From the NCBI GenBank assembly GCA_963681505.1, contig OY811979.1:6204910-6268909 (forward strand): a DNA stretch of 64,000 nt, read 5' to 3'. The notes under the pieces were generated by a model. That model ran no database searches, was not told the origin of the DNA, and saw only the letters and a program-made list of their open reading frames with translations. A program made the position numbers and the translations under genes. Origin of the DNA: Eunapius fragilis (taxonomy: Eukaryota; Porifera; Demospongiae; Spongillida; Spongillidae). Each line of letters begins with the position of its first letter. Position 1 is the first letter of the stretch. Below are positions 1,029-62,872 of this stretch, in pieces.

Positions 1029-1843
1029 TTATTGTTGGCCCATGTAAGGTTCGAAAGTGTGACCCTCAACACACAAGTGGGCTTTGGCCATTGATCCTGC
1101 CACATCTTGTGGTGTAACACAGTCAAATCCTGCCTCCACGGCCTCACGCAAATTGGTGTTGCACAGATTTGATTGATGGGCTTGAAGGAAGCTATCCAAA
1201 AAGTTGAAAACCCATTGAACACCTCCAAAGTCAGGGGAATGTATGGGGTGAATGACAACATAATGACCAGCTGCCTTGACGAATTTAACTGCTGAACTGT
1301 GCCCATCAAGGTTATCCATTGTGATAACACGGGTTCCAGTCCCTTCAATAGCAGGTAGCAACAAGTGCTGCACTAAACTTGCAAACTTGTCCCCAGTAGT
1401 CTCCTTCTCGTACAGCATTCTGCTGATGACACCTTTGACAGAGTCCACAGCAATTACAGCAGTTAGGAGGCTATCAATGCCCTTGGATGGCCCACTGTCC
1501 CGGCAAGGTGTACCACGTAGGGAGTGTCCCCTGTGTCTGCAAGCTGCACTGGTGTATCTTCCAGTTTCATCTATATCTACAATGTAACTACGAACTGGAT
1601 GGTTTGGAGCATTAGCCCAAAATGCCACTCGGTTCGTTTCATTTCCATTCTTAGAGTATCTATAATGAAACTATGAACTGGATAGTTTGGAGCATTAGTC
1701 CAAAATGCCACTCGGTCCATTTCATTTCCTCTCTTAGAGTAGTACCTCATGGCCTTGTATGTCAAGGCGAGATTCTTGAGTTCTCGTGAAATGGTCGAGT
1801 GAGAAAAATCTGAACCTTTGCCACCTTTAGAAACAATTTGCAC
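1029..1843 (-). pseudogene. Tc1/IS630-type DDE transposase remnant
   Basis: This resembles the DDE_3 transposase domain of the IS630-Tc1-mariner superfamily, which cuts and pastes DNA. The lower 199 codons show the fold's order: a first catalytic Asp in VDIDETGRY, an RGHSLRGTP strand region, a second Asp in VITMDNLDGHS, and the signature HSPDFGGVQWVFNFL. In active relatives the last motif is usually SPDxNPIE, so the third acidic residue appears replaced by Gln (GGVQW). Upstream codons read SDFSHSTISRELKNLALTYK, a helix-turn-helix-like segment. The join between the parts is broken: the block encoding RVAFWTNAPNYPVHSFIID is present twice in tandem (about 1577-1735) in different frames. The loss of frame and probable loss of a catalytic residue point to an inactive copy. 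Confidence 0.75.
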
Positions 1844-2749: not shown

Positions 2750-4680
2750 TTTATTTTTTTTAAATTTTTTTTTGATTGATTGCATACATATAAACAGACA
2801 TATATATGCAAAAAGGCAAGTAGTGGCACGATGTGTACGTGCACTTACAAACTGCCTAAACATGGGAGGGATATAACATGCAAAAGGGTGAAAGGTCCAC
2901 AGATCTAAGTCGGGTACGAAAAACTGTAATGTTCAATGAAGTGACAACATCTTGGGGTAAGTGGTTCCATATAGGTATCACACGTCCAGTGAAAAAATGC
3001 GCTCGGAATGCATGATGGGGTAAATGTTTGGATCGCAGGATACAAGGATGACCACGGCCTAGCCTGTTAGGCGAAAAAACTCTCAAAAGGTAAATCAACC
3101 AGGTTATTGTAGATCTTGTAACACATGACAAGGTCGTAGAAGACTCTCCTGTACTCTAAGGACTGTAAACCCAGGTTCGCAAGGCGATCATCATAATCCA
3201 TATATGGTGTACCAGCACGTTTGATAATGGCACGAGTGAAAAATCTCTGAACACGTTCAATACATTGAATATCTTTATGGAACCAGGGATTGGTATTACT
3301 TTCCAGAAGGGGACGAACATACACCTTATAAAGACGCACAAGGAGAGACACATCATTAGAATGAAAGCATTTTAAGAGAAGACAGCTCCTATTGAAAGCC
3401 ATGGCAGCAATGTTTGAGCAATGCATACTTGGCGTAAGGTCTGAATTCAAACACACCCCAAGATCTCTTATAGATGATACAAATTGCAAAGGAATACCAG
3501 AAAGTGTATAGGGTGAAGTAGGCTCATAACCACGAGAACCAAAGGAAATGACAGAGCACTTGGAATAAGCAACAGTCAGTTGCCATGTCTTGGACCATGA
3601 ACAAAATTGATTTAAGGATTGTGTAAGTGGTGTATTTTGATTTTCAGTATAACCAAGATACAGTTTTGTGTCATCGGCAAAGATTTTAATGCCAGCTGGA
3701 GATTGGACATGGTTAGGAAGGTCATTAACATATATCAGAAACAAGAGAGGACCAAGGACAGAACCCTGAGGTACACCACTGGTGATGGATTTAGGAGATG
3801 ATACATCAAGTCCTACATATACACATTGTGTGCGGTCGTTTAAAAAGGCTCTTATCCATTGAAGTAAGTATGATTTAAAGCCATAAGCCTCAACCTTTAG
3901 CAATAATTTAGAATGGGAGACAGTGTCAAAGGCCTTAGCAATATCAGTATACACAACATCCACCTTCATGCCATTGTCAACATTCAATGTCCAATTGTTC
4001 AGAGTTATCAATAACTGAGTACAAGCAGAACGTCGAGCGAGGAAACCAAACTGATCCTGTGAGATGAGATTATGACTACGAAGGAAGGATATCATAGAAG
4101 AAGATATACAATACTTTCCATAACTTTACAAAGGATACACGTTTGTGAGATAGGTCTGTAGTTACTGGGCTGTTTTCGTGAACCCTTTTTAAAGACAGGA
4201 CATACAAATGCAGTCTTCCAAACTAAAGGTATATGTCCATCTACTCATAGACATCTCAAAAAGGAGTGATAATGGGAAAGCAATAGCTGGGGTTAAAGAC
4301 TTTAAGAAAAAAGCGGGAAACCCATCAGGAGTTTTAGAACATTTTGATGGCAATGATTTTAAAGTCTTAAGGACCTTGTCAAATGGGAAGAGAACAGAGT
4401 TTAGGGATTTATTTTCAGAGAGACGAGGCACAAATTCTGGGAGCAAACCGTCGTCAGCAGTAAAGACAGAAGCAAAATAATCATTAAGCACAGTACATTT
4501 ATCATGATTTGAGACAGCCAAATTGTCATTGGAGTCAATGAGAGGGGGTGTACACTGAGAGGTAGTAAGCTTGGAGTTTACATATGAATAGAAAGATGAT
4601 AAGCTTAAGTAGATCGCTCGAAAGACCGAACGGCAAAACCTGTTCACCCGGGCGTACAATTTTAACCCCCAGGTGGACAT
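2750..4680 (-). mobile_element. 5'-truncated non-LTR retrotransposon with RT pseudogene
   Basis: The minus strand encodes a reverse transcriptase of a LINE-type element (CR1/Jockey-like by eye). Codons in 4189-4680 give the fingers region (SLPSKCSKTPDGFPAFFLK). A frame break near 4100-4190 splits the NYRPIS block. Codons in 3067-4095 contain the palm motifs: Asp in TDIAKAFDTVSH, the SGVPQGSVLGPLLF block and the catalytic FADD. A further frame change near 3070-3130 leads into the conserved C-terminal tail ending at 2856 (FTGRVIPIWNHLPQDVV, then LRSVDLSPF). The T-rich tract at about 2752-2772 corresponds to an A-rich 3' end. No endonuclease domain is present, so the copy is 5' truncated, and it needs at least two frameshifts to read through. 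The gene is dead. Confidence 0.9.
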
Positions 4681-14984: not shown

Positions 14985-15118
14985 GCTGTTATGTATTTCT
15001 TACAACAAATGCACTGCAGGTTAATCCCCATGGGTGTGATCATTCCCCTTCATATCTCTACCCTCTTCCTCACCTATTTGCTCTTCCTCCTCTCCCTAAC
15101 CCTCACCTTCCTCATGAT
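14985..15118 (+). repeat. dispersed repeat, family D copy 3
   Basis: Same block as 9360-9500. Its pyrimidine-rich tail runs straight into the 22-bp minisatellite. Confidence 0.75.
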
Positions 15119-16175
15119 CACCCTCCTCTGTACTCATGGTCATCCTTCTCTGTACTCACGGTCACCCTTCTCTGCACTCATGGTCACCCTTCTCTACACT
15201 CATGGTCACCCTTCTCTACACTCATGGTCACCCTTCTCTGTATTCACGGTCACCCTTCTCTGCATTCATGGTCACCCTTCTCTACACTCATGGTCACCCT
15301 TCCCTACACCCATGTTCACCCTTTTCTACACTGAAGGTCACCCTTCTCTGCACTCATGGTCAACCTTCTCTGCACTCATGGTCACCCTTCTCTGCACTCA
15401 TGGTCACCCTTCTCTACACTCATGGTCACCCTTCTCTGCACTCATGGTCACCCTTCTCTGCACTCATGGTCACCCTTCTCTGCACTCATGGTCACCCTTC
15501 TCTGCACTCATGGTCAACCTTCTCTGCAGTCATGATCACCCTTCTCTGCACTCATGATCACCCTTCTCTGTACTCATGGTCACCCTTCTCTGCACTCATG
15601 GTCACCCTTCTCTGTACTCATGGTCACCCTTCTCTACACCCATGCTCACCCTTCTCTGCACTCATGGTCAACCTTCTCTGCACTCATGGTCACCCTTCTC
15701 TGCACTCATGGTCAACCTTCTCTGCACTCATGACTATCCTTCTCTGCACTCATGGTCAACCTTCTCTGCACTCATCTACACCCTTCTCTGCACTCATGGT
15801 CACCCTTCTCTGCACTCATGGTCAACCTTCTCTGCACTCATGGTCACCCTTCTCTGCACTCATGGTCACCCTTCTCTGCACTCATGGTCAACCTTCTCTG
15901 CACTCATGGTCAACCTTCTCTGCACTCATGACTATCCTTCTCTGCACTCATGGTCACCCTTCTCTGCACTCATCTACACCCTTCTCTGCACTCATGGTCA
16001 CCCTTCTCTGCACTCATGGTCAACCTTCTCTGCACTCATGGTCACCCTTCTCTGCACTCATGGTCAACCTTCTCTGCACTCATGACTATCCTTCTCTGCA
16101 CTCATGGTCACCCTTCTCTGCACTCATCTACACCCTTCTCTGCACTCATGGTCACCCTTCTCTGCACTCATGGTC
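15112..16175. repeat. 22-bp minisatellite (array 1), about 48 units
   Basis: Unit CCCTTCTCTGCACTCATGGT plus CA. 22 is not divisible by three, but the unit has no stop in any plus-strand phase, so all three plus frames stay open for hundreds of codons (up to 385). The resulting HGHPSLHSWSPFSALMVTLL peptides are a by-product of the unit and show no evidence of selection. Related arrays lie at 49458-49660, 51776-52283 and 52545-52960. Confidence 0.98.
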
Positions 16176-16498
16176 ACATGAACGGCAATGCAGTATGATT
16201 GTTCCCAACCTCCTGTGCAAAATACATATATTTTTTGCCCTTGCTTCAATGAAATTGTGTTCAATGTCTCACAACACCAACAGAATATATTAACTACAGT
16301 TGTATAGCATTCAGTTATGTGCTGACCTTGTCTACTTTGAGCTGCAGTGTGCTACAATAGCCCAGTCACTGGAGAACAAATAAAATGAAGTAATTAATAG
16401 CACATGGAAATCTGACACAATATACCACCATACAAGAACACCCACACATGCACATATTCACACACATATATAGATAACACACACACACATAAATCATC

Positions 16499-33745: not shown

Positions 33746-34417
33746 GCTGGGTTTGGCCACATACATGCACAAGACAGTCATTGACTCACCCACATATTTA
33801 GACAACTGCACACATGCTTTAGCTCATTATAAAACCCAGGCTATTTTATTCTACCTCACGAGTACACTGGTCATTAAATAAAATCTGAATGCCAAAGGCA
33901 GTGCACATACACAGAATATAGCACACATGAATATGGGCTGTATTGTAGCCTTGTTTGACATCACACTGCACTTATTCAGCACATGCATACTGACCAAAAC
34001 GACATGTCTGCAATGTGTATACCCTTCACACTCTCCCCACTTGTGACAATCATTGTTCACATTGTAACAGCATTATATTTTGTTTTCAGCTACACCAACC
34101 AACCTGTAACCTTTTGTAGTTGATGTGACAAAACGATTATTATTCCTCGAAAATAGATCACCTAGCATCCTGCATGTCATCTATTGTTATTTGAAACCAT
34201 TTATTGGGAAGGTCACTACTTTCACCCTTACTTCTATCCTCGTGCATGATTTTTTATATAATGAGCTCTTCATATCAATTCCATTTCAATCTGAAATGTC
34301 ACTAGTGCATTTATTGAAGCACAGATTTGAGCATTGCTCTCCGAACATGCAGTGCTAAACCAAGCAATAGATTTTTATTTGCACTTATTTTTGCACACTG
34401 CTGCACGCCCTGATCTA
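33746..34417 (+). repeat. 0.7-kb dispersed repeat, family F copy 1
   Basis: Nearly the whole block reappears as reverse complement at 62164-62872, including CCACATACATGCACAAGACA, AAATAAAATCTGAATGCCAA and TTTGAGCATTGCTCTC-type motifs. No intact ORF. I infer a mobile element of unknown class. Confidence 0.85.
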
Positions 34418-38130: not shown

Positions 38131-38392
38131 GTTTGGCCGCGCACGTGACGTTCAACGTTTATACGAAAGAGTATAATGTAGCAGCGAGTTCATACCATGA
38201 CAGATGTCACAGATGAATGATGGAATTTAACCATCACCACCACCCCCTTAACCATCACCACCACCAGCACCACCACCACAGCCACAACCACCACTGGAAT
38301 GACCACAGGTATCCAAGACAAAGTATTTTCTATATGTAAAAATAGAATACATACAATGATGTTCTCACTTCCTGATATCATATGATACTCAC

Positions 38393-38644
38393 CTACCACC
38401 AGCATGAAGGAAGCACTGTTGTTGCCCAGGATGTTACTGACAACACATGTGTAGTTGCCCTCATCCCCAGACCTTACATCGCTCAGTCTCAGATTGGAGG
38501 GAGTCACCAACAGTGAGCTGTTACCCAGAGGAGCTCCATCCTTCAACCACATGACCTCAGGGGGCGGGGCTCCACTTCCATTGCACACCACTTCCACCTG
38601 GCTACCCACCTGAACAGGATTGGCTGGTCCTTTGATCTCCACAC
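38393..38644 (-). CDS. immunoglobulin (I-set/C2) domain exon
   Basis: A 252-bp minus-strand exon lies between a CTTCCCAG acceptor and a G/GTGAGT donor. Both introns are phase 1, the usual arrangement for an Ig-domain exon. It encodes about 84 residues: VEIKGPANPVQVGSQVEVVC with the first Cys, the core Trp in VMWLKDGAPLG, then SGDEGNYTCVVSN, the conserved DxGxYxC motif with the second Cys. Sequons NSS and NNS suggest glycosylation. It must be one domain of a larger adhesion or receptor protein, whose other exons I could not assign. Confidence 0.9.
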
Positions 38645-38737
38645 CTGGGAAGGCTGAACACAGGGAGGTCTGTGTCATTGAACAGGATTAAAAGATTTAA
38701 CTTACTGCAGTAAACCTGTCTGTCACATCAATGCTAA

Positions 38738-49405: not shown

Positions 49406-49457
49406 TGTACTGGCAATTTGTCAGCACAAGTGACAAAGTTATTTCAAGCCCTGCTTC

Positions 49458-49660
49458 TCTGCATTCATGGTCACCCTTCTCTGCACTCAACTACACCCTT
49501 CTCCACAGTCATGGTCACCCTTCTCTACCGTCATGGTCACTCTTCTCTTCACTCTCCTCTGCACTCATGGTCACCCTTCTCTGCACTCATGGTCATCCTT
49601 CTCTGCACTCATGGTCACCCTTCTCTGCACTCATGGTCACCCTTCTCTATACTCATTGGA
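49458..49660. repeat. 22-bp minisatellite (array 2)
   Basis: About nine units of the CTGCACTCATGGTCACCCTT family. It abuts, and truncates, the 3' end of the hAT transposase. Confidence 0.95.
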
Positions 49661-51775: not shown

Positions 51776-52283
51776 GTCCTCTGCACTCATCTACACCCTT
51801 CTCTACAGTCATGGTCACCCTTCTCTACACTCATGGTCACCCTTCTCTGCACTCATGGTCACCCTTTTCTACACTCATGGTCACCCTTCGCTGCACTCAT
51901 GGTCATCCTTTTCTGCACTCATGGTCACCCTTCGCTGCACTCATGGTCACCCTTCTCTGCACTCATTGTCACCCTTCTCGGCTCTCATGGTCACCCTTAT
52001 CCCCACTCTTGGTCACCCTTATCTATACACATGATCACCCATCTCCCCATTCATGGTGTCCTCTGCACTCATCTACACCCTTCTCTACAGTCATGGTCAC
52101 CCTTCTCTACACTCATGGTCACCCTTCTCTTCACCCTCCTCTGTACTCATGGTCACCCTTCTCTGCACTCATGGTCACCCTTCTCTGCATTCATAGTCAC
52201 CCTTCTCTGCACTCATGGTCACCCTTCTCTACACTCATGGTCACCCTTCTCTGCACTCATGGTCACCCTTCGCTGCACTCATA
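51776..52283. repeat. 22-bp minisatellite (array 3)
   Basis: About 22 units, starting right outside the hAT terminal repeat. The opening block GTGTCCTCTGCACTCATCTA is repeated inside at about 52055. Confidence 0.96.
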
Positions 52284-52544: not shown

Positions 52545-52960
52545 AGTCACCCTTCTCGGCACTCATGGTCACCCTTCTCTTCACCCTCTTCTGCACTCAT
52601 GGTCACCCTTCTCTGCACTCATAGTCACCCTTCTCTGCATTCATAGTCACCCTTTTCTGCACACATGGTCACCCTTCTCTGTACTCATGGTCACCCTTCG
52701 CTGCACTCATGGTCACCCTTCTCAGCACTCATGGTCACCCTTCTCTGCACTCATGGTCACCGTTCTCTGTACTCATGGTCACCCTTCTCTGCACTCATGG
52801 TCACCCTTCTCTGCACTCATGGTCACCCTTCTCTGCACTCTTGGTCACCCCTCTCTCTTATCTTCACCCAGGGTCACCCTTCTTTCTTCTCTTCACACGT
52901 GGTCACCCATCTCTCTTCTCTGCACTCATGGTCACCCTTTGTACTCATGGTCACTCTCAC
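52545..52960. repeat. 22-bp minisatellite (array 4)
   Basis: About 18 units continuing array 3 after the inserted family B repeat, degrading into CTCTCTTCTCT-rich sequence. Confidence 0.96.
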
Positions 52961-57222: not shown

Positions 57223-57422
57223 NNNNNNNNNNNNNNNNNNNNNNNNNNNNNNNNNNNNNNNNNNNNNNNNNNNNNNNNNNNNNNNNNNNNNNNNNNNNNN
57301 NNNNNNNNNNNNNNNNNNNNNNNNNNNNNNNNNNNNNNNNNNNNNNNNNNNNNNNNNNNNNNNNNNNNNNNNNNNNNNNNNNNNNNNNNNNNNNNNNNNN
57401 NNNNNNNNNNNNNNNNNNNNNN
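57223..57422. other. assembly gap (200 N)
   Basis: Exactly 200 N, a common placeholder length. The true size of the CCCTT tract is unknown. Confidence 0.99.
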
Positions 57423-57770: not shown

Positions 57771-60009
57771 CCCCCCTCACCCTGGAATCGGAACTTGCGC
57801 TCCCCCTTTCCGTAACAGGATGGCTTTATGTAATAGCCTTCAGGAAAAGCAGTGGGGGAGACGCGCAGCTGGTCATTGACCATTGTGGTATGAACCAAAT
57901 ACGAAAAGAAGTCATATCGCGCCCAATAGTAGCTTAACTGCCATCTTGTATATAGCCAGTTTAGCGTACAGAAGTCCCATTTGGCATCTTGCACCTCGTA
58001 GATCCGAGCACAAATGATCGCACAATGCCAGCTCCTTGCCTGTGCAGGTTATTAATCAAACTAATAAGCACTGATTGCATGAAGCTGCCGCAGGTTAACA
58101 GTTTCACTCGGCCCTCAATGTGAAATTGCACCCTAGCCAGCAATATTTTCCCCACCCTTTCTACTGTAATAAGCAACACCTCACCCCTTTCACCAGTTGG
58201 GCTTTCTGGATCTGCCCAGTTCCCAACTAAATGAGCAGTTTGCTGTTTGGCCTTATTACACATATATTCTGATTCAAATTTGCCCTGACAATAAAGACAT
58301 TTTTATCCATCATTTGAACTATTTCATTAAATTTTTGCTGTGCATTACACAGGACAGAAAAGATGTATGTGATGTGCACAATTAGTTTAATGTGAGTGAA
58401 ATCTTTCTTTATAAGTGCAAGCAATAGGGATTATCAAACTGTGGGTGATGGGTATATATTGATTTTGTTTATTTTAATGGACATGACATGCCCACCCCCC
58501 ACCCCCCTGCAGTAAAGTACATAACACTGACATTTTATCAAACAGAAACAATAATGCAACAAAAAAAAAATCTTGTTCACATGATAGGAGGAAACGCATC
58601 GTCACTTCTTGCGTGGCCTCCCCCTTTTCTTTCGGGACGGAAACGTTCGTCTGGGTTAGCCACGGGACGGGAACGTTTGGGACGGTCATGGTAGTAGTTT
58701 CCATGGGACGGGAACGATCGTTTGGGACGGTCACGGGACGGGAACGGATTTTAGATGTAATCCTAAATAGGCCTACCAGAAAAAGGTTGACTGATGATGA
58801 GTGGGCTACTACTGTTAAAGGTAAGGCTCCCATGAGACTTTCCACATAAAATAGGTGATGATTATAGGGTGTGGGGGTGGTTTTGGTAGGTAGAGGAAAT
58901 AAAATAAAATCCACATCGAATGTACACATGCACACAAGTTGTGACATGTGACCAAGCCCTTAGAATTAAGCATCTTGTTAGAAGCGGGTCGCGTTTTTTT
59001 AATGACTTCATAATCGGGGTCAAATCCTATAGAGGCTATGCGATGGAACTATGAATAATTAATGCCATTTAACTGGTTGTACCCATGGTGCTCATGTACT
59101 CATATGTATTAGAGAGAATTAGCCATCATTTCATTCCTAATTTGCTCCTGCGTGCCAAGAAAGCTGTTCTGGGCCCTTCTCACCTGGAACAAGATAGCGG
59201 CAGCCAGACACTTTTACCCATGCATTAACGCCATGTGTCTGTTAACGGTTGTACCTGTTTTGATCGTAGCATATCTATTTGGATCGAACCTTATAAGCCT
59301 CATTACTAACAAGTGTGCCTTAGCCTTTGTCCTACAGATTTTGAACATACCGTTATAGATATGGTCATGTGATCGCATAACCTCTATATGAGAGTTACTA
59401 ACGTAACTCTCGATACACGGACACATTATAATAGCACATCTCTAAGCATTTTGTGACAGGTAACTGCACCACCATGCCTACTGGCCAGTGGCAGTTATTG
59501 AGGTCATCTCCAAATAACAGGCAGATACTCTTGATCTTAGAAGTATCTAGACCTTATCACCACTTGAATCTCATTAGGGTCAAAATGCAAATCAAGACCC
59601 ATTGATGGTATCCCTTAAACAAGATCAAGCTGGCAATGAAAAACTGGCAGAATAAAAGTCAAAGAGCGTTGCAGTGTGTAGATGGTTCTTGCATGGTGGA
59701 GGCTAGGGAAAAGAAAACAAGCTCATATACCTAGCCTTGAACTTCCTACAAACTGGGTGAACATGACAAGCTCAACAACAGAAGCTCAATGCTGTCTTCT
59801 ACAACACCCACCATTGCAGTAAAATACACAATTCATTTATTTCAGCAGCATCGAAACGAAATGAAGTCCTGTTTCCAATCTATTATTCATATCAGCCAGC
59901 CCCTATTATACTATCTAACGCTCGAGTTTTGAACTTGTCATTGCAAACCTACACCATCATCAAATGTTAAACAATGCACATACAACACAATAAAAGTGTC
60001 CAAACAGTG

Positions 60010-61572
60010 TTACCTTCCTATACCTGGTGCACCTTGAGTACCCAAAATCCATATATTATCACTCTTGTCTTCATTGTTTTGCTGAATTCCATATTTTTCC
60101 AAATTCCCTATATCGTATTCACTGGTAAACTGAAATGATTGCAAATTTTCCTCCAGTACTGCAAATATTATCCGCACGTTAAATGCAATATCCGGAAAAG
60201 CAGCCTCAAATGAGTTAAGTAAGTTGAAGAAATATGTAACCTTAAATGTATGTTTAGTTGCTCTGGTTATTTGGACAATATAGATAATTTTATCTTTCGT
60301 GTGACAATAAACTGCATCATATCCGCCTTGATTCCATTTCAATGGTTTCAACCACAACGATGTTGAATTCGATAGTTTTTGCTTTATGTCGTCTTTTGTA
60401 GGTCTAAATCGTTCAACACCACACACAGGCAATGTGAAGCTTATAGGTGAACCTTTTACAGTACAGTTCAAATCACAGTTCCTAATGTGGGCAAAAAACC
60501 AAAGCTCTAATAGCCAACCATCCAAAGCAGGATTACTGTCATGTTTGACAGCTTCATATAATGCTGATATCAATTTTGGACCGGCGAGTAAGGCATATTC
60601 TGTAGCTGCATACTCACTGACTATACATTTGTTATATCTCAATCCATTCTTATATAAACTAATGATCCTGTGAACTGCTGCAGGTACAGTAATACCAGAA
60701 GTAGAACTAAGATACAATTGCATATTCGGGCATTCCTGCAAGGCTGTATTTATAACATCTTCAACCTGAGAGCTGCTGTAAGAAAACATAAAGCGGCAAC
60801 ATCCACCAGCAATAAAATACTTTGATTGTATCAGAAGATCATGTGTCGAATCAGTTTCTGTCCCCATAATTTCTAAATTTTTATGTACACTGTCAAAAAG
60901 TGTAGGAATACTGAGAGCAGATCTATACTCAGCTTCAGTCCAAGATGTAACCATGAAGGGAGGATGTATAACTGCCAATTCTAGGTCATCACTTTTAAAT
61001 TTGTATGTTGCTGCCAATGAGGTTGTAAAAATCAATCTGTGAGTATCTAACTTCTTTTCCAACCAATCAATGCACAAGTCTGCTATGACTCTGAAATGTG
61101 AATTCAATTGTGTACAACCCAGACCATCCACAACCAATAAGTGAATTTTACTTTGCTGTTTTTCCACTTCTGACATTAAGCCATCAAAGCAAGACTGAAA
61201 ATTTAACCGAACAATTTTAGATGAATATTTTATACCATTCTCAAAGCGCAAAACGTAATAGTGACCAACACTAGTAATGTGGAGCCACGTAATAATCCAT
61301 TTTGAAATGAGTCTCATAGTATAAACAAAAGTTGCAATCGATTTGCCTGTTCCAGGAGGACCTCTAACATAGCAAATTTTTGTGTCACGACCATGAAGGC
61401 AACTATCATAAAGTTTAAAAAGCTCATCCACTACATCACGAAAAAAGAAAACTACATCTGGATTATCACGATTGCACAATCCACTGCCAGAAATATAATC
61501 AGCTTTGATGGTCAAGTACCGTAAATTTTCTTGTGTTGTAACTTCCAAATCTTTAAGTTCTGTTGCATTCAT
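60010..61572 (-). CDS. P-loop NTPase-nuclease protein, Crinkler/RHS (CR)-like
   Basis: A single 520-codon ORF. The N-terminal half is a P-loop NTPase: Walker A YVRGPPGTGKS (about residues 68-78), Walker B SKIHLLVVDG (141-150) and a sensor-like RLIFTTSL (179-186). The C-terminal third looks like a PD-(D/E)XK (REase-type) nuclease: Glu in DGWLLELWFFA (about 356), Asp in NQGGYDAVYC (about 419), and the strand IIYIVQITRATKHTF (429-443), whose QxT...H pattern is typical of the nuclease in Crinkler and retrotransposon-hotspot (RHS) proteins. In that class the NTPase-nuclease pair acts as an intracellular effector or a transposon-linked protein; its role in animals is not established. The ORF ends WILGTQGAPGIGR, itself like the start of a second P-loop, next to donor-like CAG/GTATAG and AAG/GTAACA sites, so it may continue in another exon. 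The frame is intact, which suggests selection or recent arrival. Confidence 0.7.
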   Translation of the reverse strand: MNATELKDLEVTTQENLRYLTIKADYISGSGLCNRDNPDVVFFFRDVVDELFKLYDSCLHGRDTKICYVRGPPGTGKSIATFVYTMRLISKWIITWLHITSVGHYYVLRFENGIKYSSKIVRLNFQSCFDGLMSEVEKQQSKIHLLVVDGLGCTQLNSHFRVIADLCIDWLEKKLDTHRLIFTTSLAATYKFKSDDLELAVIHPPFMVTSWTEAEYRSALSIPTLFDSVHKNLEIMGTETDSTHDLLIQSKYFIAGGCCRFMFSYSSSQVEDVINTALQECPNMQLYLSSTSGITVPAAVHRIISLYKNGLRYNKCIVSEYAATEYALLAGPKLISALYEAVKHDSNPALDGWLLELWFFAHIRNCDLNCTVKGSPISFTLPVCGVERFRPTKDDIKQKLSNSTSLWLKPLKWNQGGYDAVYCHTKDKIIYIVQITRATKHTFKVTYFFNLLNSFEAAFPDIAFNVRIIFAVLEENLQSFQFTSEYDIGNLEKYGIQQNNEDKSDNIWILGTQGAPGIGR

Positions 61573-62163
61573 TCTAGTCCATTCTATACATGTATAAGGG
61601 ATGAGGGTGTATGTTTCATCAACGTGTGGTCTTATTAGTAATTACCCTGAGCAACACATGATATATCAGTGCTTATGATACGATTTGACTTTTGACCTGA
61701 TGGAAATATTGGTCAGACGGTTTATAATTTTGGCTGGACATGTATCTAACTGTTAATTTTTAGTACACTATCAAATACATGCTATTGAATTCATGCATAG
61801 ATACACCTTTACCACTAAACAACCTGGAAGCTACCCCTATCATAAATGTCAAAGTATGGGAATTAAGTTGCCACTTGTAGGTGAAGTGGCTTGTGACAAA
61901 GTGGGGTCATTCTATAGCAATGACCCCTTGTTTAAAACACTGCATCCTCTCAGATTTAGATGAAGTTATCACACCAATTATCACGTTTCATGAATAGATA
62001 ATGGAGTTTCAACCATTCTGACCTCTCAATGTTTGTACCTTCCTTTCTGTTTAACGAAAGGCCTAAACATATATTTAAGGTATCATTTTAAAGCTCATAG
62101 TGTGCCCAATCTCAAAAAAGGGATAGGTAGGTATTTAAAATGCCACCATTCCCCACTTTGATC

Positions 62164-62872
62164 AGGGCATGCAGCAGTGTGCAAAATAAGTGCAAATAAA
62201 AATCAATTGCTTGGCTTAGCACTGCATGTTTGGAGAGCAATGCTCCTAAAATCTGTGCTTCAATAAATGCACTAGTGACATTTCAGATTGAAATGGAATT
62301 GATATGAAGAGCTCAGGGCCATATTTATATAAAACATCATACACAAGGATAAAGTAAGGGTGAAAGTAGTGACCTTCCCAATACAGTGTTTCCAATAACA
62401 ATAGATGACATACAGGATGATAGGTGATGTTGGGCAACAGTCCGTATATATATTTTCGAGGAATAATAATCGTTTTGTTGTTGTTGTCACATCAACTATA
62501 AAGTTTACAGGTTGGTTGGTGTAGCTGAAAACAAAATATAATGCTGTTACAATGTGAACAATGATTGTCACAAGTGGGGAGGGTGTGGAGGGTATACACA
62601 TTGCCGACATGTCGTTTTGGTCAGTATGCATGTGCTGAATAAGATATGTCATAGTGCAATGTGATGTCAAACATGGCTATAATACAGCCCATATTCATGT
62701 GTGCTATATTCTGTGTATGTGCACTGCCTTTGGCATTCAGATTTTATTTAATGACCAGTGTACTCGTGAGGTAAAATAAAATAGCCTGGGTTTTATAATG
62801 AGCTAAAGCATGTGTATAGTTGTCTAAATATGTGGGTGAGCCAATGACTGTCTTGTGCATGTATGTGGCCAA
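62164..62872 (-). repeat. 0.7-kb dispersed repeat, family F copy 2
   Basis: Reverse complement of 33746-34417 with few differences, lying just upstream of the NTPase-nuclease gene. 61573-62160 has no feature I can name. Confidence 0.85.

What the first reader, a model, noticed from the sequence alone, without database searches (positions are those of the whole stretch)
60010..61572. Intact NTPase-nuclease (Crinkler/RHS-like) protein in an animal genome
Walker A (GPPGTGKS), Walker B (LLVVDG) and a downstream E...D...QxT...H nuclease signature occur in one uninterrupted 520-codon frame. This is the architecture of CR-type effectors, known mainly from oomycetes, fungi and trypanosomes. Nearly all other mobile-type genes in the window are broken, so an intact frame stands out. 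The C-terminus ends in a second P-loop-like start (GAPGIGR) beside plausible splice donors, hinting at a longer or tandem-NTPase protein.
Basis: partly seen in the sequence, partly recalled or inferred. Interest (0 to 1): 0.85.

Follow-up and report, generated by a model that had tools for sequence, protein, structure and literature searches.

The report
Animal gene resembling Crinkler nuclease proteins
An animal chromosome carries an uninterrupted gene, one of a small and reshuffled family, whose protein looks like an energy-driven switch joined to a DNA-cutting enzyme, the same layout as proteins that microbes and selfish genes use as weapons; the resemblance rests on conserved motifs and still needs a structure and a functional test.

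Summary
The minus-strand frame 60010-61572 (520 codons; 543 stop to stop) is real and far longer than chance. The assembly (219 Mb, Wnt loci, so an animal) holds 14 family loci, 9 on contig C9. Five loci, three distinct lineages 29-35% identical, keep full-length open frames and share those residues. No relative was found in viral, phage, plasmid or prokaryote collections. Profile and PDB searches give only sub-threshold STAND/AAA/ORC-Cdc6-like hits to the ATPase half and nothing convincing for the nuclease half; AlphaFold without an alignment failed. The Crinkler/RHS-type reading therefore rests on motifs and their order, not on a profile or fold match. The spliced tandem-NTPase idea is not supported. 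New here: a close copy is a mosaic, retroelement sequence lies beside some copies, and the window copy differs from close copies with a modest, model-dependent excess of replacement changes. It looks like a recombining conflict gene in an animal. Animal precedent exists (Tribolium Medea1): new member of a known kind.

The parts
60010..61572 (-). intact 520-codon frame, proposed NTPase-nuclease gene (or its main exon)
60868..61395 (-). P-loop NTPase region, residues about 60-235
   Evidence: sub-threshold nSTAND_NTPase5 (E 3e-4), AAA_16; paralogs likewise; ORC/Cdc6-like weak hits
61339..61362 (-). Walker A GPPGTGKS (71-78)
   Evidence: GPPGxGKS invariant in 3 lineages
61123..61137 (-). Walker B LVVDG (146-150)
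   Evidence: D149 and G150 invariant
60916..60945 (-). conserved SWT..EYRSA block (210-219)
60784..60825 (-). conserved SK..AGG..RFMF block (250-263); likeness to a STAND GxP element is recalled, not tested
60073..60540 (-). proposed REase-like (PD-(D/E)XK) nuclease region, residues about 345-500
   Evidence: motif order E-D-QxT-H conserved; no profile or fold confirmation
60493..60513 (-). LLELWFF with E356
60307..60354 (-). W407..P410..QGGYDAVY with D419
60250..60276 (-). VQITRATKH (Q434, T436, H441)
60013..60033 (-). GAPGIGR tail: not a Walker A; kept in near copies C and I, not in the two diverged intact paralogs
59836..59841 (-). AATAAA after the stop (offset 171), possible 3' end signal, also in copies C and I
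59415..61640 (-). segment of about 2.25 kb shared with copies C, D and I at 94.9-95.8% DNA identity
59415..59654 (-). dispersed repeat of about 240 bp inside the shared segment; its end coincides with the end of the homology

Best explanation
The frame is the main exon of an animal gene for a Crinkler/RHS-type (CR-type) NTPase-nuclease. Shown here: an intact frame; a P-loop NTPase motif set followed by an invariant E...D...QxT...H set; a small multicopy family with three intact lineages; mosaic exchange between close copies; retroelement sequence beside some other copies. Inferred: the second half folds as a PD-(D/E)XK nuclease; the STAND/ORC-like NTPase acts as a nucleotide-controlled switch that licenses or positions it; the protein cuts DNA inside the cell that makes it. 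Most likely use: an intracellular conflict protein, either defending the genome against invading or mobile DNA or acting for itself as a selfish element. It turns over by duplication, gene conversion and pseudogenisation, as trypanosome RHS genes do. Nothing found here suggests a secreted virulence effector: no header domain was detected, though secretion signals were not tested.
For: Frame length. Motif residues invariant in three full-length lineages at 29-35% identity; E, D, QxT and H also present in the 224-codon frame of locus J, whose twin K is 99.8% identical. The more sensible weak profile hits are nSTAND_NTPase5, NPHP3_N, AAA_16 and Orc1/Cdc6, which agrees with the CDC6/ORC1-STAND class that I recall for CR NTPases. 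Family of 14 loci, 5 with full-length open frames. Copy I is a mosaic of A-like and C-like blocks: 23 runs in 95 informative sites, 0 of 20000 permutations as low. Excess replacement changes A vs I: 54.5 N to 7.5 S, neutral mean 45.4 N, P 0.004 at kappa 2.56 and 0.023 at kappa 1. A retroelement-like ORF abuts the frame of copy I, and RNaseH/integrase ORFs lie beside the C23 fragment. Reported CR architecture NTPase + REase (PMC5289972; PMC11342252) and RHS mosaic behaviour (PMC7563717), all seen as passages. Failure to predict the REase domain in a CRN by ordinary tools is also reported and blamed on sequence diversity (PMC11064341, passages).
Against: No profile, solved structure or model confirms the nuclease fold: no relevant Pfam family for 4 nuclease-half segments (best hits Ribosomal_L22e 0.074 and Viral_Beta_CD 0.32), PDB only noise or weak NTPase-side hits, AlphaFold mean pLDDT 35.6 and 36.2. 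Even the NTPase hits are all below curated cut-offs. Crinkler header PF20147 and RHSP PF07999: 0 matches in the genome, with silent controls. No expression data. The two diverged intact paralogs have no Met before the P-loop, so the gene model is incomplete. The replacement excess is modest, depends on kappa (A vs C: P 0.18 at kappa 1), compares with broken copies, is absent between C and I (P 0.29), and the pairs overlap. The 100% identity of A and B over at least 14 kb ends at an N gap and may be an assembly artefact.
Confidence: 0.62

Rival explanations
1. A Medea-like selfish element: the protein kills cells or embryos that lack a linked antidote or a resistant copy, by cutting DNA, and so drives its own spread.
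For: CR-NTPase8 + CR-REase7 is reported for Tribolium Medea1 (PMC11342252 passages) and a related nuclease class for Spok killers (PMC12693581 passages). 9 of 14 loci lie on C9, three of these being near-identical twins of others there; replacement excess; 9 of 14 loci broken or partial.
Against: No antidote gene or domain was looked for or identified; no population data; membership in the REase7/NTPase8 clades was not tested.
Confidence: 0.15
2. A STAND-type immune sensor with a nuclease effector (NLR/Avs-like), built by the animal against viruses or mobile DNA.
For: nSTAND-class weak hits and DG Walker B; replacement excess and gene conversion.
Against: No sensor repeats found by Pfam in the frame; the nuclease-like half lies after the NTPase; PADLOC best E 0.015.
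Confidence: 0.15
3. A decaying mobile-element passenger: the frame is intact only because the copy is young, and has no current function.
For: 9 of 14 loci are broken or partial; close copies differ with no sign of purifying selection; retroelement neighbours of some copies.
Against: Three lineages at 29-35% identity keep 516-606-codon open frames and the motif residues, which argues for long-term selection on the family.
Confidence: 0.2
4. An unrelated AAA/STAND ATPase whose C-terminal half is not a nuclease; the E-D-QxT-H pattern is coincidental.
For: No profile or fold support for the nuclease half.
Against: QGGYDAVY is the longest run of invariant columns in the three-lineage alignment and VQ.T....H follows it; both patterns recur in an NTPase-less 224-codon frame at locus J (there EGGYDAVY).
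Confidence: 0.1

Closest known systems
CR (Crinkler-RHS-type) proteins with NTPase + REase C-termini (Zhang et al. 2016, not held here; seen through PMC5289972 passages)
   Same: P-loop NTPase followed by a REase-like active-site set in one protein; multicopy and recombining
   Different: No Crinkler (Ubl) header found; no sequence match to the curated Pfam models; host is an animal and no parasitic role is indicated
Tribolium Medea1-type mobile CR-like elements (PMC11342252 passages)
   Same: Reported NTPase + REase architecture in an animal genome, mobile-element association
   Different: Clade membership (CR-NTPase8/CR-REase7) not tested; no killing phenotype or antidote known here
Trypanosoma RHS (retrotransposon hot spot) family (PMC7563717 passages)
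   Same: ATP/GTP-binding motif, many pseudogenes, mosaic genes by gene conversion, retroelement association
   Different: 14 loci instead of hundreds; PF07999 gives no match; retroelement sequence here lies beside some copies, no common insertion point is shown
STAND NTPase immune proteins (NLR, Avs; recalled)
   Same: weak nSTAND/NPHP3_N similarity of the NTPase
   Different: no sensor repeats detected in the frame, nuclease-like part on the C-terminal side

Membership tests
CR (Crinkler-RHS-type) NTPase-REase proteins | P-loop NTPase with Walker A and B | tested here: met
   GPPGxGKS and DG invariant in 3 of 3 full-length lineages
CR (Crinkler-RHS-type) NTPase-REase proteins | NTPase of the CDC6/ORC1-STAND clade (recalled definition) | tested here: inconclusive
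   only sub-threshold nSTAND, NPHP3_N, AAA_16 and Orc1/Cdc6 hits
CR (Crinkler-RHS-type) NTPase-REase proteins | C-terminal REase-superfamily (PD-(D/E)XK) domain | tested here: inconclusive
   E...D...QxT...H invariant in 3 of 3 lineages but no relevant Pfam hit and no usable model
CR (Crinkler-RHS-type) NTPase-REase proteins | N-terminal header domain (Ubl 'Crinkler' or other) | tested here: inconclusive
   no PF20147 match in P0001 (E up to 10) or in the genome (control silent); possible upstream exons are unknown; other header types not tested
Trypanosoma RHS (PF07999) | match to the RHSP profile | tested here: not met
   no match in P0001 (E up to 10); 0 in the genome at E<=10 (its control was silent, so absence from the genome is not shown)
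Medea1-type elements | CR-NTPase8 + CR-REase7, with E on the first strand and H three residues after the active-site E | not tested
   no reference sequences held; feature read in PMC11342252 passages
Medea1-type elements | maternal-effect killing | not testable with these tools
   needs crosses
STAND immune receptors (NLR/Avs) | sensor repeats after the NTPase (recalled definition) | tested here: inconclusive
   none of the 6 Pfam families listed for the 520 aa is a repeat family, but further exons are not excluded

The most novel reading that the evidence does not exclude
A self-encoded, Medea-like DNA-cutting selfish gene family in an early-branching animal, concentrated on one chromosome, diversifying by gene conversion under positive selection: an endogenous killer or allorecognition nuclease rather than a parasite's effector.
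Probability: 0.12. Interest if true: 0.85.

Novelty: new member of a known kind. Interest (0 to 1): 0.52.

Why it matters
CR-type NTPase-nucleases link transposon enzymes, pathogen effectors, gene drives and reproductive killers. An intact, recombining family in a chromosome-level animal genome would let one test whether such proteins serve the animal (genome defence) or themselves (selfish killing), without a parasite in the picture.

Tried and rejected
Tandem NTPase via a spliced GAPGIGR: not supported. Relatives outside the genome: none in viral contigs (600 pattern stretches, 0 confirmed), genome contigs (593, 0 confirmed), plasmids or phages. Structure: two single-sequence AlphaFold runs failed; fold search was therefore not run, since a low-confidence model gives meaningless matches. 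PDB sequence searches: noise or weak ORC/Cdc6-like hits. Codon-position differences between the diverged paralogs are near saturation and were not used as proof of selection. The 3' flank diverges less (2.1%) than the coding part; because of mosaicism I do not use it as a neutral yardstick. Literature: Zhang et al. 2016 is not held. Searches for CR proteins in animals showed listings only: 8 papers; 1; 10 of 1,775 listed, none with the word crinkler; 15 of 22 listed; none that I could identify from title or abstract start describes such a family in a sponge or other non-insect animal. This is a limited search of open papers. Passages were also seen of PMC6131194 and PMC8195603, not used as evidence.

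Full report
OBSERVATION. The reported frame is real and lies on the minus strand: ATG at 61572, TAA at 60010-60012, 520 aa, within a 543-codon stop-to-stop frame. In 500 first-order Markov shuffles of 4 kb around it the longest frame averaged 105 codons, maximum 190.

THE GENOME AND THE FAMILY. The window is G000:C9:6204910-6268909 of a 219-Mb, 24-contig assembly. Seven Wnt matches at about three loci show that it is an animal; three Wnt loci would fit a sponge (recalled), but the species is not established. Searches with three different family members give the same 14 loci, neighbouring pieces counted as one: nine on C9, two on C23, one each on C1, C15 and C19 (one search adds one weak piece, E 0.004, about 5 kb from one of the C23 loci). 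These are lower bounds, as the tool says. Four pairs are nearly identical: A (window) and B 100% over 14,060 bp, C and D 100% over 14,552 bp, G and H 99.7% over 17,954 bp, J and K 99.8% over 9,621 bp; each alignment reaches an end of a fetched stretch on at least one side, so true lengths may be greater. A/B homology ends at the 200-N gap (57223-57422), so part of this duplication may be an assembly artefact. Full-length open frames exist at 5 of 14 loci: A/B (543 codons), C15 (516) and G/H (606), that is three distinct lineages. The other nine are broken or partial.

CONSERVATION. The three full-length lineages are 29-35% identical to each other, yet share GPPGxGKS, the DG of Walker B, SWT..EY.SA, SK..AGG..RFMF, LLE..FF, W..P.K..QGGYDAVY and VQ.T....H.FK..YF. 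The E, D, QxT and H set also occurs in a separate 224-codon frame at J that lacks the NTPase. Such a pattern at this divergence argues for long-term selection on the family.

WHAT THE DOMAINS ARE. For the first half, Pfam offers nSTAND_NTPase5 (E 3e-4 for P0001, 1.4e-4 for P0003), NPHP3_N, AAA_16 and other AAA families, all below their cut-offs. NCBIfam and PDB point weakly to Orc1/Cdc6 (E 0.13; E 0.49-1.8, beside mitoribosomal mS29). That fits the CDC6/ORC1-STAND class which I recall, and did not read here, as the class of CR NTPases. For the second half there is no relevant hit: 4 segments from four family members gave only Ribosomal_L22e (0.074) and Viral_Beta_CD (0.32) at E up to 10. AlphaFold without an alignment gave mean pLDDT 35.6 for the whole protein and 36.2 for residues 318-505. 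The nuclease assignment therefore rests on the conserved E...D...QxT...H order. A paper on Phytophthora CRNs also failed to predict an expected REase domain and blamed sequence diversity (PMC11064341, passages). The curated Crinkler header (PF20147) and RHSP (PF07999) models found nothing in the genome, but the controls were silent too.

THE C-TERMINUS AND THE START. The 'second P-loop' is not supported. GAPGIGR lacks the K-S/T of a Walker A; the two diverged intact paralogs do not share it; and where the window copy has AG|GTAACA, copies C and I have AGATAAC. An AATAAA lies at offset 171 after the last codon and is also in C and I. A CAG|GTATAG donor-like site is kept in A, C and I, so a further exon is not excluded. 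On the other side, the C15 and G frames have no Met before the P-loop, and C15 has a good acceptor-like site just upstream. This suggests that in those paralogs the frame is not the first exon; the true start of the window gene is uncertain.

HOW IT EVOLVES. The window copy shares with C, D and I only a segment of about 2,246 bp around the gene at 94.9-95.8% DNA identity, window 59415-61640, apart from other repeated pieces elsewhere in the flanks. The last 240 bp of it (59415-59654) are a dispersed repeat: of 41 listed matches, five are full-length matches in CR copies, one is in the truncated copy E and 35 are elsewhere (40 of 118 candidates were scored). The homology ends exactly at the repeat's end, which suggests repeat-mediated rearrangement. 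For the 5' flank 61573-62159 only the twin B is listed (40 of 83 candidates scored; the roughly 70 bp shared with C, D and I are not listed there, so the list is not complete); 62160-62600 is another dispersed repeat. Copies C/D, E and I are broken (TGA, truncation, frameshift). In copy I an opposite-strand ORF abuts and slightly overlaps the start of the CR frame; it has a weak aspartic-protease hit (Spuma_A9PTase, E 2.7e-4, 21.6 bits against a cut-off of 21) and looks like retroelement polyprotein by eye. The C23 fragment lies on the same strand as ORFs with RT_RNaseH and integrase domains; the gag- and protease-like look of the ORFs on its other side is by eye, without Pfam hits.

MOSAICISM AND SELECTION. 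Of 108 two-state sites among A, C and I, 63 join C with I, 32 join A with I and 13 join A with C. Many of the A-like sites of I lie at codons 298-395: 23 runs in 95 sites, 0 of 20000 permutations as low. This is gene conversion or recombination. Replacement changes exceed neutral simulation for A vs I (54.5 N, 7.5 S; P 0.004 at the observed kappa 2.56, 0.023 at kappa 1), A vs E (41.5 N, 4.5 S in the first 325 codons; P 0.003 and 0.015) and, weakly, A vs C (67 N, 14 S; P 0.039 and 0.18), but not for C vs I (30 N, 8 S; P 0.29 and 0.53) (kappa 4 gives smaller P). The comparisons overlap, are not corrected for number, and involve broken copies, so this is a lead to diversifying selection, not proof.

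MECHANISM. Most likely: nucleotide binding and hydrolysis by a STAND/ORC-like switch controls a DNA nuclease in the same chain. PMC5289972 (passages) reports the view that in CR proteins toxicity lies in the REase and that the NTPase regulates it. Whether the animal uses it for genome defence or the gene serves itself cannot be told. Medea1 in Tribolium (PMC11342252, passages) and Spok killers (PMC12693581, passages) are selfish precedents; trypanosome RHS genes (PMC7563717, passages) show similar mosaic turnover. I do not file it as a Crinkler effector, because the header was not found and the nuclease fold is unconfirmed; it works like one on present evidence.

NOVELTY. The architecture has an animal precedent, so I call it a new member of a known kind. 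What would raise the interest is confirmation of the nuclease fold and evidence of drive or defence.

Noticed in passing
window 59415-59654: Dispersed repeat of about 240 bp; listed copies 76-97% identical, on 17 of 24 contigs. Just beyond it lies a palindrome-like GAGAGTTAC/GTAACTCTC at 59390-59411.
   Followed up: partly
window 62160-62600: Another dispersed repeat, sharply bounded at 62160, up to 99% identical elsewhere (C5, C23); a further copy at G000:C9:6238923-6239324 falls inside the window at about 34014-34415.
   Followed up: partly
window 57223-57422: 200-N gap in a CCCT-rich tract; the 100% identity with the copy at C9:7.308 Mb ends there, which hints at a scaffolding problem.
   Followed up: partly
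window 1032-1670 (minus): 213-codon frame resembling a DDE transposase of the Tc1/IS630 kind by eye; no Pfam hit at E<=0.01.
   Followed up: no
window 3070-4125 (minus): 352-codon open frame with an RVT_1 reverse transcriptase domain, E 8.6e-23, so not every mobile-type frame in the window is short.
   Followed up: partly
window 38193-38687 (minus): Frame with an immunoglobulin I-set domain, E 2.2e-15, probably an exon running on into intron sequence.
   Followed up: no
window 15111-16177, 49454-49656, 51779-52282, 52581-52856: Much the same 22-bp tandem unit (CTCATGGTCACCCTTCTCTGCA and close variants) recurs in several separate arrays and stays open in several frames.
   Followed up: no
L036:5137-5649 (minus), G000 C23: Family fragment with SKHYFAGGSCRYMF beside RNaseH and integrase ORFs of a Ty3/gypsy-like element, with gag/protease-like ORFs (by eye) on the other side.
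   Followed up: partly
L034:5054-5725, and its twin K on C19 (L035): Nuclease half alone in a 224-codon open frame, 47% identical to the C15 protein, on a duplicated segment of at least 9.6 kb shared by C9 and C19.
   Followed up: partly
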